Source: Xanthomonas maliensis (GTDB lineage Bacteria; Pseudomonadota; Gammaproteobacteria; Xanthomonadales; Xanthomonadaceae). Taken from it: 55,737 bases of DNA. Both the position numbers and the translations under genes were made by a program. The stretch covers positions 1-55,737 of the forward strand of contig NZ_NSET01000002.1 of NCBI RefSeq assembly GCF_009192945.1, read 5' to 3'. Below are positions 36,988 through 42,769 of this stretch, piece after piece. The first letter of the stretch is position 1; each line of letters opens with the position of its first letter. The notes under the pieces are model-generated. The model searched no databases. It saw only the letters and a program-made list of their open reading frames with translations, and was not told the origin of the DNA.

Positions 36988-37659
36988 TTACGGGATGGCC
37001 AGTCGGTCCAGGTAGGCGCGTAGCTGTTGTTCGCGTGCGGCGGGATCGGACGCGAGCGCGGGTGGTTGCGCTGCGGTTGCGCGCGCATGCACGCGCGGGT
37101 ACGGGTGCGCCGGCACCGGGCAGTGCAAGAAAGCGCATAGCCGATCCCATCCTTCGTCTGCGCTCAGGATCAGCAAGCGCTCCGCTGGAAGGCTGTCGAT
37201 GACATGCTGGTTCCAGCGCTGGAAATAGTCGCGCATGAATCCGCGATCGTCGATGTGCGTGCCCAGGTCGCGGCGGATGAACTGGCTGAGCGCGCGGCCA
37301 TCGGGGCCGAACAGTCCGGGCACCTCGGGCGAGGTTGAAAAGATCGTACTGCGCACCGAGTCGAACCAGTCGTCCGGATCGCGGACGGTCAGGATGACCT
37401 TGGCGTGCGGATAGCGCGTGGCCAGCGCAGGCCAGAAACAGCAGCCCGGATAGTCGGTGGTTGCGGCGTAGCCGGCAAAGATCGCCTCCCAGTCGGGAGT
37501 GCCCTGGATGGCGCGATTCCATAGCGGCAGTGCCTGACGCAGGTTGGCGGCCAGTTCCATCGCGTGATAACACGGGCCAAACCCCAGTTGCTCCAGCGCG
37601 ACCTTCAACGAGAGCGTGCCGGTTCGCCCAAGCCCGGCGCCGATCACGCGCAAGCTCAT
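36988..37659 (-). CDS. Sulfotransferase family protein (second)
   Basis: The 223-residue protein begins MSLRVIGAGLGRTGTLSLKV, a PAPS-binding 5'-phosphosulfate loop (GLGRTGT) of the P-loop sulfotransferase group. The 3'-phosphate part follows in KVILTVRDPDDWFDSV (RDP) with downstream Ser. It has no membrane segment. It would move sulfate from PAPS to a hydroxyl, here plausibly a Tyr phenol. ATG 37659 overlaps the stop of the upstream sulfotransferase (ATGA), so it is the last gene of the P450 operon. The acceptor is inferred from the operon only. Confidence 0.85.
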   Translation of the reverse strand: MSLRVIGAGLGRTGTLSLKVALEQLGFGPCYHAMELAANLRQALPLWNRAIQGTPDWEAIFAGYAATTDYPGCCFWPALATRYPHAKVILTVRDPDDWFDSVRSTIFSTSPEVPGLFGPDGRALSQFIRRDLGTHIDDRGFMRDYFQRWNQHVIDSLPAERLLILSADEGWDRLCAFLHCPVPAHPYPRVHARATAAQPPALASDPAAREQQLRAYLDRLAIP

Positions 37660-38570
37660 GGCGATCCTCCGCCTGCGTGGGCCAGCCAGCGTGCCGCCTC
37701 CTCGCCCAACTCCTGGCGCGCCCGTTCGTCGTAAGCGGCGCACAGCGGGGCTGGCAGCCGCTCGCGCCAGCGGCCGTGGCGGCCCTGGTTGAAGAAGGCC
37801 TTGCCGCCGTCGCGCCAGAGACCGGCGCCATGCGGCACATAGCGTGCGGCGTGCTGCCGCATGTAGTCGAAGCCGCAGTGCGTCAGGATGGCGTCCCAGT
37901 GCGCGGTGGCGACTTGGATGCCAAGAAAGTCGGCGATGCGCCGCGCATGGCCCGGCAGGTCCGCGACCAGATCGGCGTAGTGCAGCACCAGGACATTGGA
38001 GGCTGCGCGGCGTCCATACCAGGAGCGAACGTTCTCCCAGAATGGCCAGAACGGCGCGCCATCCTGCTGTAGCCAGCGCGCGACGTAATCGGGGATGTCC
38101 AGGTCCGGAGGCGGGACCACGCGCAGCGGCTTGCCATCGGACCCGGCGGTCTCCAGGCGTGCCTGCGCATCGCGACTGAGCGCGCATTGATGGTCGTATA
38201 GGCTTAGCGCGATATCGCGACCATCGCGGCCGATGTACAGATACTTGGTTTCGCTGCGGAACGGCAGCGCATCGGCGGGCAGGTGGGTCTTCATCACCCG
38301 CCGGTGAGTCTGTGCAGCCAACAGCGCCTGCTTGCCGGCCTTGTCCGGATAGACGCCATCCACCCACGGCGAGATCGCCGCAACCTCGACGTCTGCACGC
38401 CCGCCGAAGATCAGTTGCACAACGAGCTGTTGCAGCCACGTTGTCCCCGCCTTCGCATAACTGGCAATCACGATATCGTCGCTGCGGGCATCGATGCCAT
38501 CCCACACAGAAGGATCGAAGAACCGGTTGCTATAGGGGCGCGCTGGCGCCGGTGGTGTCGCATCACGCAT
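37656..38570 (-). CDS. Sulfotransferase domain protein (first)
   Basis: The 304-residue protein is a Sulfotransfer_1-type enzyme. It has the PAPS loop YAKAGTTWLQQLVVQL near residue 35, KTHLPAD, the 3'-phosphate motif KYLYIGRDGRDIALSLYDH, and the late GAGLWRDGGKAFFNQGRHGRW (RKGxxGDWK-like) that closes on PAPS. It is a soluble, cytosolic type resembling aryl/flavonol sulfotransferases, so a phenolic acceptor is reasonable. The start at ATG 38570 (MRDATPPAP) overlaps the P450 stop by 8 bases; ATG 38576 is also possible. It precedes the second sulfotransferase with ATGA coupling. Confidence 0.88.
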   Translation of the reverse strand: MRDATPPAPARPYSNRFFDPSVWDGIDARSDDIVIASYAKAGTTWLQQLVVQLIFGGRADVEVAAISPWVDGVYPDKAGKQALLAAQTHRRVMKTHLPADALPFRSETKYLYIGRDGRDIALSLYDHQCALSRDAQARLETAGSDGKPLRVVPPPDLDIPDYVARWLQQDGAPFWPFWENVRSWYGRRAASNVLVLHYADLVADLPGHARRIADFLGIQVATAHWDAILTHCGFDYMRQHAARYVPHGAGLWRDGGKAFFNQGRHGRWRERLPAPLCAAYDERARQELGEEAARWLAHAGGGSP

Positions 38571-39954
38571 GCGCATCCTTCGACGATGTCGGTACGGTCG
38601 TGGGTGTTGTTTGCATCGCCGCGGCGGTAGCGGGGCGCGGCCGCAGGTGGAGGCGGACGTCCAGCGGACGGAGCACCAAGGCGGGAAACGCGGACGGTCG
38701 TGCACCGGCGGCCAGTTGCAAGGTGACCGCGCGCAGCATCCAGGCCACCACCACCGTCATCTGGGTGATGGCCAGTGCACTGCCGATGCAACTGCGCGGT
38801 CCTGCGCCGAACGGGAAATAGCTGTAGCGCATGGTGGCGTTGGGCGCGGCGGCATGCCAGCGCTGCGGCATGAATCGATCGGGGTCGACATGGTGGCGTG
38901 GATCGCGCTGTGCGATCCAAGGGCTGACGATCAGTTGCGTGCCCACCGGGACATCGAAGCCGCCCAGGACTGTGTCCTGTTGCGCGATTCGTGCGGTCAT
39001 CCAGGCCGGCGGATAAAGGCGTAGCGCCTCCTTGACGCAGGCCTTGCTCAGTTGCAAATGCTGCAGTCTGTCCTCGCCGAAGGGTTCGTCGGGCGATGGC
39101 AGCACGGCATGCGCCTCGTCGGCCACCGCTTGCGCCATGTCCGGGTGCCGGGCCAGCAGCAACAGCGTCCAACTCAGCCCGGCGGACATCGGCTCCAGGG
39201 CAGACATCAGCATCGCGGCCAGCTCGTCGCGGCACCAGCGGCTTTGGCCATGCGGGTCATGCGCCAGCAGGCGATCCAATAGCGCATCACCGCCGTTAGG
39301 CATTGATCTGCGCTGCGCGATGATGCGATCCAGGGCCGCGTCGAGGCTGCGGTGTGCGCGCCGCAGACGCCAGTGAGCCAGCGACGGCCACCAGGATGGC
39401 CGACCGCTGCGATGACGGGTCTGACGCATGATGGCGTCCACCATCGGGATCAAACCGGCAAGCTGCGGCGCAAGCGCAGGGTCTCCCAGCAGAAAGCCAG
39501 CGCCGAGCTCTGCGCACAGGTCGTTGATCGCGATGCGCATGTCGACGGCGTCAGCGTGGCCGCTCAGCCGTTGCAGCAGCGATTGCGTGGCAGCTGCAGC
39601 TTGAATCGCATGCTCGCGCACCAGTGCTGATCGAAATGCTGGCTGCAACAACTGGCGCTGATCGCGCCACTGCTTGCCGCTGCAGTTCATCATCGAGGCG
39701 GGAAAGGCCGCACGGCGGCTGTCGAACGCGGGGTCGTGCTTGCTGAAACGCAGGCCGGTATCGCTGAGAATTTCGTCGATCAGCGCTGGTGCGGCAACGA
39801 CATAGGTGGCCGCAGCGATCTTGACGACCTCGCCGTGGTCGCGGACGCAGGCCCGCAGGAAGGTCAGTGGATCGTCACGGAATGCGACGCGATTTCCGAG
39901 CGCCCAATGCCCGCTTGGGCCGGGAGGAACACGTTGTTGGCTTTCGGCGCGCAT
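38563..39954 (-). CDS. Cytochrome P450, proposed peptide cross-linking enzyme
   Basis: The 463-residue soluble P450 carries ExxR at Glu309-Arg312 (KEALRLYPP) and the haem loop FPFGAGPRSCIG with axial Cys389. The I-helix is unusual: the usual acid-alcohol pair (E/D-T) reads SALEPMS (Glu254-Pro255), so the oxygen-activating Thr is absent. Some P450s that couple phenols by radical chemistry rather than hydroxylate differ here too. It lies directly after a 27-codon peptide gene ending YIYTY and before two sulfotransferase genes. By analogy with cittilin biosynthesis I propose that it forms biaryl or aryl-ether links between Tyr side chains. A role in small-molecule oxidation cannot be excluded from sequence alone. 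Confidence 0.85.
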   Translation of the reverse strand: MRAESQQRVPPGPSGHWALGNRVAFRDDPLTFLRACVRDHGEVVKIAAATYVVAAPALIDEILSDTGLRFSKHDPAFDSRRAAFPASMMNCSGKQWRDQRQLLQPAFRSALVREHAIQAAAATQSLLQRLSGHADAVDMRIAINDLCAELGAGFLLGDPALAPQLAGLIPMVDAIMRQTRHRSGRPSWWPSLAHWRLRRAHRSLDAALDRIIAQRRSMPNGGDALLDRLLAHDPHGQSRWCRDELAAMLMSALEPMSAGLSWTLLLLARHPDMAQAVADEAHAVLPSPDEPFGEDRLQHLQLSKACVKEALRLYPPAWMTARIAQQDTVLGGFDVPVGTQLIVSPWIAQRDPRHHVDPDRFMPQRWHAAAPNATMRYSYFPFGAGPRSCIGSALAITQMTVVVAWMLRAVTLQLAAGARPSAFPALVLRPLDVRLHLRPRPATAAAMQTTPTTVPTSSKDAHA

Positions 39955-40033
39955 GGAGACCTCGCCAAGAATGTATCCGCAGGGCCGGGCTCACGCGCTG
40001 AGCAAGGTCGCGCTGTGCGCGTTTGCGAGGGAC

Positions 40034-40065
40034 GACGCGGAGCAGGGGGATGCCCTCTCCGCGTC
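40034..40065 (-). terminator. Hairpin between precursor gene and P450 gene (attenuator candidate)
   Basis: GACGCGGAG (40034-40042) and CTCCGCGTC (40057-40065) form a perfect 9-bp stem, extended inward by GGG/CCC. It stands 10 bases after the precursor stop and 80 before the P450 ATG and has no T tract. Such a leaky terminator is common in RiPP clusters and keeps precursor transcripts in excess over enzyme transcripts. Confidence 0.6.
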
Positions 40066-40075
40066 GCAAGCTAGC

Positions 40076-40159
40076 TCAGTAGGTATAGATGTAGCCGAGC
40101 TTGCGGGCGCCAAACACCTGCATCCAACGGCGGAGTGTGGTCATCAGGCCAGTCATCAT
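40076..40159 (-). CDS. Putative 27-residue RiPP precursor ending in YIYTY
   Basis: This short gene is directly readable on the minus strand: ATG 40159, stop TGA 40078-40076. AGGAG stands 8 bases upstream, the strongest ribosome-binding site in the neighbourhood. Residues 1-22 form an amphipathic, basic leader-like part (MMTGLMTTLRRWMQVFG, then ARKLG). The last five residues are Tyr-Ile-Tyr-Thr-Tyr. Cittilin of Myxococcus xanthus comes from a 27-residue precursor with a C-terminal Tyr-Ile-Tyr-Tyr core next to a P450 and a methyltransferase gene. The length, the core (one Thr added) and the P450 neighbour all agree. ATG 40156 is an alternative start. No similarity search was possible; the identification rests on these features. 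Confidence 0.75.
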   Translation of the reverse strand: MMTGLMTTLRRWMQVFGARKLGYIYTY

Positions 40160-40178
40160 CGGTATATCTCCTGTTAAT

Positions 40179-40213
40179 AGAAGTCCCCTTCGGTATGACC
40201 GAAAGGGACTTCT
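40179..40213 (-). promoter_or_regulatory. Leader hairpin next to the precursor ribosome-binding site
   Basis: AGAAGTCCC/GGGACTTCT (9 bp), one mismatch, then TTCGGT/ACCGAA (6 bp) with a 3-base loop. It ends 7 bases upstream of the AGGAG of the precursor gene and would sit in its 5' leader. It could stabilise the small mRNA or control its translation. A second inverted pair, GGCGAT-N10-ATCGCC (40227-40248), is a weaker operator candidate. Confidence 0.6.
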
Positions 40214-40407
40214 ACCTTGCCGCGCAGGCGATGACATCCGCAATCGCCGGTCTGTCCGGTATTGCGAAGCTACGTATCGATTTGCGATGAAGCTTCCGCA
40301 GAAGTTATGCGCGGAATCAGGATGAGGGCTGCACTGCGCAGCATATGGATGTCACCTGTCGTAATGCGCGTGATAGCGTTTGGCAACCGAGTGGAACGAG
40401 AAAGCCA

Positions 40408-41184
40408 ATGGCAGTCGGACTGCACTACGATCGGTTCGCCGCGTTCTACGATGCCTGGCACGATCGCTGGCCGGAGAGTGCCAAAGCCGAGTGCGTCCAG
40501 GCATTGGCCGTCCTGGCACAGGGCCGGGCCGCGCTCGAACTCGGAATCGGCACCGGACGGATCGCCTTACCGTTGTCCCGCTGTGGTGTGCCGGTGGTCG
40601 GGATCGATAACGCGCCTGCAATGCTGCAGCGCTTGCGTGCCAAGCCGGGTAGCGAGGTGCTACAGCTGGTCTGCGCCAATTTTGCCGATATGCCGCTCGC
40701 CGGTTCCTTCGGCTTGATCTATTCCAGCATGTCGTTCGGTTATCTGCTGACGCAGGCCGAGCAACTGCGGTGCCTGATCAACGTCGCCGGTTGCCTGGCC
40801 AGCGACGGCGTGCTCGCGATCCAGACGGCGGTGCCGGCGGGTGAGGCATTCGAGGCGGGGGGCAAGGTCAGCCAGGTACTGGATGTTCCCACCGAGGACG
40901 GCGAGGGTGCTGCCGTGATGCTGGTCTGCTCGCAGTCCGATCCGGTGCAGCAGCGCATCGATCAGCGGATCGTGGTGCTTGGCGAGGACGGAACGCGGAT
41001 CTTCAACGAGCGCAGGCGCTATGTCTGGCCTTCCGAGCTGGATCTGATGGCGCAGATCGCGGGGTTGCGGCTGCGTGCGCGATGGAGCGATTGGGCCGGG
41101 CAGCCCTATACGGCGCGCAGTCGCACCCAGATCTCCCTCTATGAGCCTGCGCCGACGGTCGGCCGGGCGGTGCGCATGAGCTGA
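40408..41184 (+). CDS. Class I SAM-dependent methyltransferase
   Basis: The 258-residue protein begins MAVGLHYDRFAAFYDAWHDR, typical of small-molecule methyltransferases. Motif I is RAALELGIGTGRIALPLSRC, motif II acidic Asp is in VVGIDNAP, and motif IV/VI are FGLIYSSMSFGYLLT and LASDGVLAIQT. The acceptor is not known. It diverges from the precursor/P450 operon across a shared 248-base region, which fits membership of the same cluster; the cittilin cluster also encodes a methyltransferase. A start at ATG 40345 is possible but adds 21 atypical residues. Confidence 0.85.
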   Translation: MAVGLHYDRFAAFYDAWHDRWPESAKAECVQALAVLAQGRAALELGIGTGRIALPLSRCGVPVVGIDNAPAMLQRLRAKPGSEVLQLVCANFADMPLAGSFGLIYSSMSFGYLLTQAEQLRCLINVAGCLASDGVLAIQTAVPAGEAFEAGGKVSQVLDVPTEDGEGAAVMLVCSQSDPVQQRIDQRIVVLGEDGTRIFNERRRYVWPSELDLMAQIAGLRLRARWSDWAGQPYTARSRTQISLYEPAPTVGRAVRMS

Positions 41185-42183: not shown

Positions 42184-42483
42184 TCAGGTGTCACGTGTAT
42201 AGCCCGCCTCTCGCTGTGCGCGGAGTGCCATCACGACGACCGTGTCGGTCACATCCACGTCGCGATACAACGCCACGTACCCGTGCGAACCGCGGCCCAT
42301 CACCAGTTCGCGCTGTTCTCCATGGACCGGTCGGCCGATCAATGGATTGCTTCTCAGCACGTCGAGCGCGCTGACGATTTCCTCGGCTCTTTCTTCAGCA
42401 TGTTCGCTTTCGTGCTCGCGCAAATACGCGGCGATCCGCTCCAGATCCTCGATCACGCCGAAGCCAAGGCCGATGCGCGTCAC
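42184..42483 (-). CDS. ParE/RelE-superfamily toxin
   Basis: The 99-residue protein starts at GTG 42483 ((M)TRIGLGFGVIEDLERI). It shows the ParE/RelE fold landmarks: LERIAAYLREHESEHAEERA helix hairpin, ALDVLRSNPLIGRPVHG, RELVMGRGSHGYVALYRD, VVVMALRAQREAGYT. Members inhibit gyrase (ParE) or cut mRNA (RelE). The RPV...R..V..YV.LYR.. pattern leans to ParE. The antitoxin stop is one base upstream of the GTG. Confidence 0.88.
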   Translation of the reverse strand: MTRIGLGFGVIEDLERIAAYLREHESEHAEERAEEIVSALDVLRSNPLIGRPVHGEQRELVMGRGSHGYVALYRDVDVTDTVVVMALRAQREAGYTRDT

Positions 42484-42484
42484 C

Positions 42485-42769
42485 TCAGTCTTCCAGCTTG
42501 CGCGCCACCGGTCGCTTGGCAGGCTTTCCTACGACCAGTGCCTGGAAATAGCTGCGCGCCTCGTTCCACGGAATGGTCTCGCCTGTCTCCAAGAACTCGG
42601 CCCAGCGCTGGTCGGCCTGGGCGTGGAAGTCGGCCCGTCGCTCGGCCAGCGCGGCCTTCTCGGCAATGGCTTCCAGGATGAAGTTGTGCGACGTGGTGCC
42701 GGCCGCTTCGGCCGCCTTGGCGACGCGAGCCTTGAGTGCGTCCGGTAGGCGGATGGTGGTGGTACTCAC
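42485..42769 (-). CDS. Ribbon-helix-helix antitoxin (ParD/CopG type)
   Basis: The 94-residue protein starts MSTTTIRLPDALKARVAKAA, a ribbon-helix-helix DNA-binding segment, followed by TTSHNFILEAIAEKAALAER and a C-terminal arm rich in Trp, Arg and Glu that would bind the toxin (DQRWAEFLETGETIPWNEA). It pairs with the downstream ParE/RelE-like toxin. Its stop is one base from the toxin start. Autoregulation at its upstream region is expected. Confidence 0.88.
   Translation of the reverse strand: MSTTTIRLPDALKARVAKAAEAAGTTSHNFILEAIAEKAALAERRADFHAQADQRWAEFLETGETIPWNEARSYFQALVVGKPAKRPVARKLED

What the first reader, a model, noticed from the sequence alone, without database searches (positions are those of the whole stretch)
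36988..41184. Cittilin-like RiPP cluster: 27-residue YIYTY precursor, P450, two sulfotransferases, divergent methyltransferase
A 27-codon gene with a strong ribosome-binding site ends in YIYTY and precedes a P450 gene and two sulfotransferase genes on the minus strand. A class I methyltransferase diverges from it. Established knowledge: cittilin of Myxococcus xanthus comes from a 27-residue precursor with a C-terminal YIYY core, a P450 that makes biaryl and aryl-ether links, and a methyltransferase. The shared length, core, P450 and methyltransferase are hard to explain by chance. The added sulfotransferases and the extra Thr in the core would make a new branch. I know of no characterised Xanthomonas counterpart. 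Product and activity are inferred.
Basis: partly seen in the sequence, partly recalled or inferred. Interest (0 to 1): 0.95.

Follow-up and report, generated by a model that had tools for sequence, protein, structure and literature searches.

The report
Bacterial mimic of plant hormone phytosulfokine
A Xanthomonas genome carries a tiny gene whose product ends in YIYTY beside a P450 gene, two sulfotransferase genes and a methyltransferase gene, and sister species carry at the same spot, without the P450, a gene that mostly ends in YIYTQ, the exact sequence of the plant growth hormone phytosulfokine, so this cluster is predicted to make a sulfated, likely cross-linked mimic of that hormone.

Summary
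In detail: a 26-27-codon gene ending in YIYTY, a P450, two sulfotransferases and a divergent methyltransferase. The P450 clade joins the cittilin-type P450s (100/100), so "cittilin-like" is partly right but misses the main point. The plant hormone PSK is disulfated YIYTQ. In 12 of 12 Xanthomonadaceae genomes with this P450 (of 395 searched) the precursor ends in Tyr, nine in YIYTY. Ten others carry both sulfotransferases and methyltransferase matches at the same site without the P450; their precursors end YIYTQ (8), YIYTN (1), YIYIP (1). Agrobacterium vitis plasmids carry the full set (P450 35%, methyltransferase 49%, sulfotransferases 51-57% identity) with a diverged leader and the same YIYTY. 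Best reading: a self-sulfating bacterial phytosulfokine pathway, as exact hormone sequence or as a P450-modified YIYTY form (this window). Sulfation, cross-link, export and receptor action are inferred. Two of the 12 P450 clusters have broken genes. Bacterial PSK-like sequences were listed by others (Yuan 2021, not readable here); ten paper searches and the passages opened tie none to such enzymes.

The parts
40076..40159 (-). precursor peptide gene, 27 codons from the first ATG or 26 from the second (40156); core YIYTY = last five codons 40079-40093
   Evidence: homologues
40178..40214 (-). 17-bp hairpin just upstream of the precursor's ribosome-binding site; no counterpart seen in the aligned relatives
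40032..40067 (-). predicted stem-loop between precursor and P450; a stem-loop is also predicted here in the other 11 Xanthomonas P450 clusters and 5 of 5 fetched A. vitis plasmids
38563..39954 (-). cytochrome P450, 463 aa, predicted cross-linking enzyme; I-helix LEP, haem motif FGAGPRSCIG
37656..38570 (-). sulfotransferase ST1 (Sulfotransfer_1), 304 aa, motifs SYAKAGTTW, KTHLP, GRDGRDI, NQGRHGRW (roles recalled)
36988..37659 (-). sulfotransferase ST4 (Sulfotransfer_4), 223 aa, motifs GAGLGRTGT, TVRDPDDWF (roles recalled)
40345..41184 (+). class I SAM methyltransferase, divergent; nearest NCBIfam model is the daptide RiPP methyltransferase, far below cut-off
   Evidence: matches in relatives

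Best explanation
The locus encodes a 26-27-residue precursor whose last five residues, YIYTY, are predicted to be cross-linked by the P450, likely sulfated on Tyr by the two sulfotransferases and likely methylated by the divergent methyltransferase, then cut free to give a likely mimic of the plant hormone phytosulfokine (disulfated YIYTQ). Shown by sequence: the precursor, its conserved core, the enzyme set, the fixed chromosomal site, and the sister clusters that lack the P450 and mostly end in exact YIYTQ. Inferred: that the enzymes act on this core; that Tyr1 and Tyr3 carry sulfate as in PSK; that the P450 joins Tyr5 to another Tyr (in these genomes Tyr5 is present whenever the P450 is, and absent whenever it is not); that a peptidase and exporter encoded elsewhere release the product; and that it acts through the plant PSK receptor PSKR1 on growth and immunity, as PSK itself does.
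For: Ten of ten P450-less Xanthomonadaceae clusters have a precursor beside ST4, ST1 and a methyltransferase match: YIYTQ 8, YIYTN 1, YIYIP 1. Twelve of twelve P450 clusters end in Tyr: YIYTY 9, YIYSY 1, YIYIY 1, FTYIY 1. Both kinds lie between ahcY and the DUF3228 gene (11 of 11 other P450 clusters; 8 of 10 P450-less ones show both flanks, the other two only ahcY because the loci are short). A. vitis plasmids: same four enzymes, diverged leader, identical YIYTY in 5 of 5 fetched of 6 records. Core codons change mostly silently: P450 group (11 of its 12; G282 left out) core 30 silent/19 replacing versus leader 152/291 over 55 pairs; YIYTQ group (5 of its 8) core 8/0 versus leader 27/30 over 10 pairs. 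PSK is disulfated YIYTQ (abstract in listing, PMC11004253), is called the only known plant hormone with two sulfotyrosines, which give about 40-fold higher receptor affinity (passages of PMC9372746), and Arabidopsis PSK6 is YIYTH (passages of PMC11534595), so the last residue varies in plants too. The one P450 cluster with Phe for the first Tyr (G282, FTYIY) lacks ST1 and the methyltransferase.
Against: No product, sulfation or plant response has been measured. The window ends in Tyr, not Gln, and a cross-link could spoil receptor fit. The cittilin core YIYY already shares YIY, so for the window alone the likeness to PSK beyond cittilin is one Thr; the case rests on the sister YIYTQ clusters. 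Core variants YIYIY, YIYIP and FTYIY stray from PSK. I noticed no peptidase or exporter gene in the cluster and did not run a signal-peptide predictor. By sequence the nearest solved relatives of ST1 are SULT-type small-molecule sulfotransferases; neither is shown to act on peptides. The methyltransferase has no counterpart in what I read of plant PSK making. Either form is in only 22 of 395 family genomes, and clusters decay: in G011 ST1, ST4 and methyltransferase are interrupted, in G027 P450 and methyltransferase. PSK receptors do not only favour bacteria: a review lists OsPSKR1 for leaf streak resistance in rice (PMC11534595). The Tyr5-P450 link has few independent origins (two Xanthomonas clades and A. 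vitis), so the Fisher value of 1.5e-6 overstates it.
Confidence: 0.7

Rival explanations
1. A sulfated cittilin-type RiPP whose target is bacterial or microbial; the likeness to phytosulfokine is inherited from the cittilin YIY core and means nothing for plants.
For: P450 joins the cittilin-type P450s at 100/100; cittilin-type loci have 27-aa precursors ending APYIYY; 17 of 277 biarylitide clusters encode sulfotransferases (passage of PMC13417212), so sulfation need not mean hormone mimicry.
Against: Exact YIYTQ in 8 of 10 P450-less sister clusters with two sulfotransferases; Thr4 kept in most Xanthomonas cores and in A. vitis although leaders diverge.
Confidence: 0.17
2. The YIYTQ form is a phytosulfokine agonist but the P450-modified YIYTY form in this window is an antagonist or a receptor-evading decoy at the same plant receptor.
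For: Two alternative forms at one chromosomal site; Tyr5 and P450 go together.
Against: No binding data; the simplest reading is that both forms act alike.
Confidence: 0.1
3. Chance short ORF next to an unrelated catabolic P450 and sulfotransferase operon.
For: Short ORFs are common; P450s and sulfotransferases are broad families.
Against: 12 of 12 and 10 of 10 conservation of the frame; specificity in 5,309 ORFs; recurrence on A. vitis plasmids.
Confidence: 0.01

Closest known systems
Phytosulfokine (PSK), plant disulfated pentapeptide hormone
   Same: YIYT core; Tyr at positions 1 and 3; sister clusters mostly have exact YIYTQ; two sulfotransferases beside the gene
   Different: Fifth residue Tyr here; bacterial precursor of 26-27 aa instead of 77-109 aa in Arabidopsis (table passage); P450 and methyltransferase added; sulfation not shown
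Cittilin / CitA-CitB and methyltransferase of myxobacteria
   Same: Short precursor with C-terminal YIY core, P450 of a joined clade, methyltransferase
   Different: YIYTY not YIYY; two sulfotransferases; I-helix LEP not xET; leader ends LG not AP; methyltransferase hardly similar (one weak match, 31% over 61 aa, E 0.03, in one of five loci)
RaxX-RaxST-RaxB of Xanthomonas (PSY mimic)
   Same: Xanthomonas peptide with its own sulfotransferase that copies a plant tyrosine-sulfated hormone (passages of PMC8618561 and PMC9372746)
   Different: Different hormone and precursor; no P450 named in the rax set; no dedicated peptidase-exporter noticed here; RaxST was not compared by sequence
Cittilin-type RiPPs shandoamide, syrinamides, citreamide
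   Same: P450-modified RiPPs described as cittilin-type (passages of PMC12352619 and PMC12299652)
   Different: Made by heterologous expression in S. albus; original paper not readable here, precursor sequences not compared
Xanthomonas atropopeptides
   Same: P450-modified RiPPs predicted from Xanthomonas (passages of PMC11450843)
   Different: Cores xWxxYx or xWxxWx; the core here has no Trp

Membership tests
Phytosulfokine-type peptide | Core YIYTQ (or the plant variant YIYTH) | tested here: not met
   Window core is YIYTY; met in 8 of 10 sister P450-less clusters
Phytosulfokine-type peptide | Sulfate on Tyr1 and Tyr3 | not testable with these tools
   Two sulfotransferase genes with expected motifs present; no product data
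Phytosulfokine-type peptide | Perception by PSKR1 | not testable with these tools
   needs plant assay
Cittilin family | P450 in the CitB-type clade | tested here: met
   Careful tree, joined group 100/100 against 26 other P450s, though in a separate subclade with LEP I-helix; the M. xanthus CitB itself was not identified by name
Cittilin family | 27-aa precursor ending in YIYY | tested here: not met
   26-27 aa ending in YIYTY; yardstick loci end APYIYY (5 of 6 myxobacterial, 1 PYHYY; plus Nocardiopsis); YIYY core of CitA recalled and from the finding
Cittilin family | Biaryl plus aryl-ether cross-links | not testable with these tools
   needs product structure
Atropopeptides | xWxxWx or xWxxYx core | tested here: not met
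   No Trp in the core (motif from PMC11450843 passages)
Biarylitides | Five-residue precursor peptide | tested here: not met
   26-27 codons (definition from PMC13417212 abstract)
RaxX/PSY mimics | PSY-like sequence as printed in the table of PMC8618561 | tested here: not met
   Precursor shows no such stretch by eye (table passage)

The most novel reading that the evidence does not exclude
Plant-associated bacteria of several groups (Xanthomonas, Agrobacterium vitis and, by enzyme kinship only, Burkholderiales and Pseudomonas) own a self-contained pathway for the plant hormone phytosulfokine: in some Xanthomonas the exact disulfated YIYTQ, and in others, including this window, a P450-stapled YIYTY version of the hormone, the first cross-linked form of a plant peptide hormone.
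Probability: 0.6. Interest if true: 0.96.

Novelty: new variant of a known kind. Interest (0 to 1): 0.9.

Why it matters
PSK signalling through PSKR1 promotes growth, and Arabidopsis pskr1 mutants show enhanced immunity to Pseudomonas syringae DC3000 (passages of PMC11534595). In the passages seen of a May 2026 review, the table of microbial mimics of plant signal peptides has RaxX as its bacterial row, and its PSK row is a fungus that makes the host release PSK (PMC13157962). A bacterial pathway that makes and sulfates PSK itself would be a second, independent case of Xanthomonas hormone mimicry, would explain two sulfotransferases in one small cluster, and would give a natural stapled hormone as a tool for receptor work. 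It turns an annotation of 'P450 plus sulfotransferases' into a testable host-signalling hypothesis.

Tried and rejected
Plain cittilin membership: rejected on core, I-helix motif and sulfotransferases. HrpX (PIP) box in the 500 nt ending at the precursor's stop codon (motif recalled): none in the 12 P450 clusters; of 10 P450-less loci, seven have a match on the other strand about 270-300 nt before the stop codon, near the end of ST4, two (L181, L182) have one inside the precursor gene, one has none; not taken as evidence. Sigma-70 promoter scan of 39900-40450: none. SHOCT-domain gene beside the methyltransferase: no match in the relatives. Fold of the P450 (mean pLDDT 79.5) and Foldseek against PDB: ordinary P450 fold, best hit CYP184A1, 26% identity, nothing specific. 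NCBIfam: ApyO (RiPP P450) and daptide methyltransferase models match far below cut-off. Viral scan: no relative. Class-wide search with the Trinickia P450: 4 of 369 genomes, the window's own and three at 34-38% identity, in which no such ORF was found upstream. Of 19 myxobacterial P450 loci scanned, the six nearest to P0153 had a cittilin-type precursor and the other 13 none. Burkholderiales-type genomes (order of G500, chosen by a recalled rRNA probe): 0 of 399, and 0 of 4 in another family, at E<=1e-80, so the precursors of Trinickia, Robbsia and Paracidovorax remain unread; their P450 and ST1 kinship rests on protein lists. In four cases the longest-contig lengths of a P450 and an ST1 are equal (6853, 13125, 6071, 3376), which suggests linkage. 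The first tblastn for ST4 used a wrong frame and was redone. A shell loop failed and was redone.
Full report
What is there. On the minus strand of the window a 27-codon ORF (40159-40076; 26 codons if the second ATG is the start) encodes MMTGLMTTLRRWMQVFGARKLGYIYTY behind a good ribosome-binding site. Downstream lie a P450 (39954-38563), a Sulfotransfer_1 protein ST1 (38570-37656) and a Sulfotransfer_4 protein ST4 (37659-36988), with 8-nt and 4-nt overlaps; a class I methyltransferase (40345-41184) diverges.

Conservation beside the P450. Of 395 Xanthomonadaceae genomes searched, 12, the window's own included, have this P450 at E<=1e-60. All 12 have, 121-186 nt before the P450 match, a precursor ending in Tyr: YIYTY in 9, YIYSY (G239), YIYIY (G008), FTYIY (G282). 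In the ten distinct sequences M1, W11, Q13, L20, G21 and the third and fifth core residues, both Tyr, are invariant. Codon changes in the core are mostly silent, those in the leader mostly replacing (30/19 against 152/291 silent/replacing, 55 pairs of 11 genomes, the divergent G282 left out). The 11 other clusters sit between ahcY and the DUF3228 gene, as the window's does; 10 of the 11 match ST1, ST4 and methyltransferase; G282 has only ST4, inverted. Not all are intact: in G011 ST1 has an internal stop and ST4 and methyltransferase match in pieces; in X. phaseoli ATCC 49119 (G027, L010/L100) the P450 and the methyltransferase match in pieces. Small overruns past the P450's own stop in G008, G011 and G012 are at its poorly conserved end.

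The sister form without P450. A search with an X. arboricola ST1 found it in 21 of 395 genomes: 11 of the 12 above plus 10 without the P450. The 10 have ST4, precursor, ST1 and a methyltransferase match and no P450 match at E<=1e-3 in the loci held; ST1 and ST4 frames are open in all ten, the methyltransferase in nine, broken in G019. Eight show both flanking genes ahcY and DUF3228, two (short loci) only ahcY. Their precursors, for example MKIVKTMLSLVFSKILKMFGPRKVAYIYTQ, end YIYTQ in 8, YIYTN in G004 and YIYIP in G019. The ST1 of G019 has zero branch length to one named X. fragariae. YIYTQ is exactly phytosulfokine, a disulfated pentapeptide (abstract in the listing, PMC11004253). I recognised the likeness from memory when I saw the A. 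vitis core and then checked it in the papers.

Agrobacterium vitis. Six plasmid records carry a P450 34-35% identical. Five were opened. Each has, shortly before the P450 (110-111 nt in the two read out, behind AAAGGAG), MKKFLAVFIGASKLNRRKPRYIYTY, then P450, methyltransferase and the two sulfotransferases; identities of the S4 proteins to the window's are 34.7, 48.6, 57.1 (ST4) and 51.4% (ST1). The leader is hardly alike, the core is the same.

Kinship of the P450. A careful IQ-TREE of 60 rows puts Xanthomonas (7), Burkholderiales/Pseudomonas and unnamed relatives (9) and A. vitis (2) in one clade (100/100), and this together with 16 cittilin-type P450s in one group (100/100) against 26 other P450s. 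The cittilin-type rows are tied to cittilin by DNA: of the six myxobacterial loci nearest to the P450 named Myxococcus hansupus, five have a 27-aa ORF ending APYIYY and one ends PYHYY, and a Nocardiopsis locus ends APYIYY. Cittilin's 27-residue precursor and CitB are described in PMC8708641 (passages); the M. xanthus gene itself was not compared by name. In the I-helix all 18 rows of the window's clade read LEP where all 42 other rows have Thr after the acid position. So this is a separate branch next to the cittilin enzymes. The five myxobacterial loci with wide flanks give no sulfotransferase match better than E 0.1. ST1 of Xanthomonas (both forms), A. vitis, Trinickia, Robbsia and Paracidovorax fall in one group of 35 rows, apart from ten other sulfotransferases and two unassigned rows (100, quick tree); in that tree the label 'no P450' for two unnamed rows (P0252, P0260) was my guess.

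How it most likely works. The precursor may be made in excess over the P450: a stem-loop is predicted after its stop codon in 12 of 12 Xanthomonas P450 clusters and 5 of 5 A. vitis plasmids, but also at many of the other loci folded, so this is weak. The P450 joins two Tyr of the core. Tyr5 is the likely partner: it is there in 12 of 12 genomes with P450 and 0 of 10 without (Fisher 1.5e-6, inflated by kinship). The sulfotransferases then make the product PSK-like; PSK is described as the only known plant hormone with two sulfotyrosines, worth about 40-fold in receptor affinity (passages of PMC9372746). The methyltransferase may methylate the N-terminus, by analogy with myxarylin (passages of PMC8708641) and the weak daptide-type match. 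A peptidase cuts before YIYTY and an unknown exporter releases it. In the plant it would act on PSKR1, whose loss raises immunity to Pseudomonas syringae in Arabidopsis; against a simple reading, the same review lists rice OsPSKR1 for leaf streak resistance (passages of PMC11534595).

What is known. Fungal and 'Proteobacteria sp.' PSK homologues with YIYTQ are listed, receptor unknown, in a table of PMC8618561 citing Yuan et al. 2021 (passages); that paper was not held, so it may already include the Xanthomonas YIYTQ precursors. RaxX is the known sulfated Xanthomonas hormone mimic. Ten paper searches were run; in their listings, and in the passages opened of eleven papers, nothing ties phytosulfokine to a bacterial P450 or sulfotransferase cluster; most listed papers were not opened. 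YIYTY occurred in one paper, on drug design by its title. The library lacks most subscription journals, among them the original cittilin and cittilin-type papers.

Verdict. The cluster is real, conserved and most likely a phytosulfokine-mimic RiPP pathway in a P450-modified form. The chemistry and the plant target are untested.

Noticed in passing
L010 8001-9358; L100 9299-10656: In X. phaseoli pv. phaseoli ATCC 49119 the P450 is split over two frames and the methyltransferase matches in pieces, while precursor, ST1 and ST4 frames remain.
   Followed up: partly
L097 (G011): Precursor and P450 remain but ST1 has an internal stop and ST4 and methyltransferase match in pieces: a decaying cluster.
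   Followed up: partly
L105 (G282): Cluster with core FTYIY lacks ST1 and the methyltransferase and carries ST4 inverted; a missing first Tyr goes with a missing sulfotransferase.
   Followed up: partly
L015 7807-9236: Nocardiopsis sp. FIRDI 009 has a cittilin-type P450 with a 27-codon GTG-started precursor ending APYIYY.
   Followed up: partly
L122 (G834): A myxobacterial cittilin-type precursor ends PYHYY instead of PYIYY; its P450 is 100% identical to one named Myxococcus hansupus.
   Followed up: no
L152, L153, L178-L180: A. vitis clusters are followed by a phytanoyl-CoA dioxygenase gene and some have IS6 or IS66 transposase genes nearby, on large plasmids, two of them typed as conjugative.
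   Followed up: no
window 40178-40214: A 17-bp hairpin directly upstream of the precursor's ribosome-binding site, not seen in the aligned relatives.
   Followed up: partly
window 42184-42769: ParE-like toxin gene with a ribbon-helix-helix antitoxin-like gene between ahcY and the cluster.
   Followed up: no
P0257, P0266, P0268 (protein list): ST1 relatives in Brenneria, Sphingobium and Gynuella fall in the same ST1 group; their neighbourhoods may hold further PSK-like genes.
   Followed up: no
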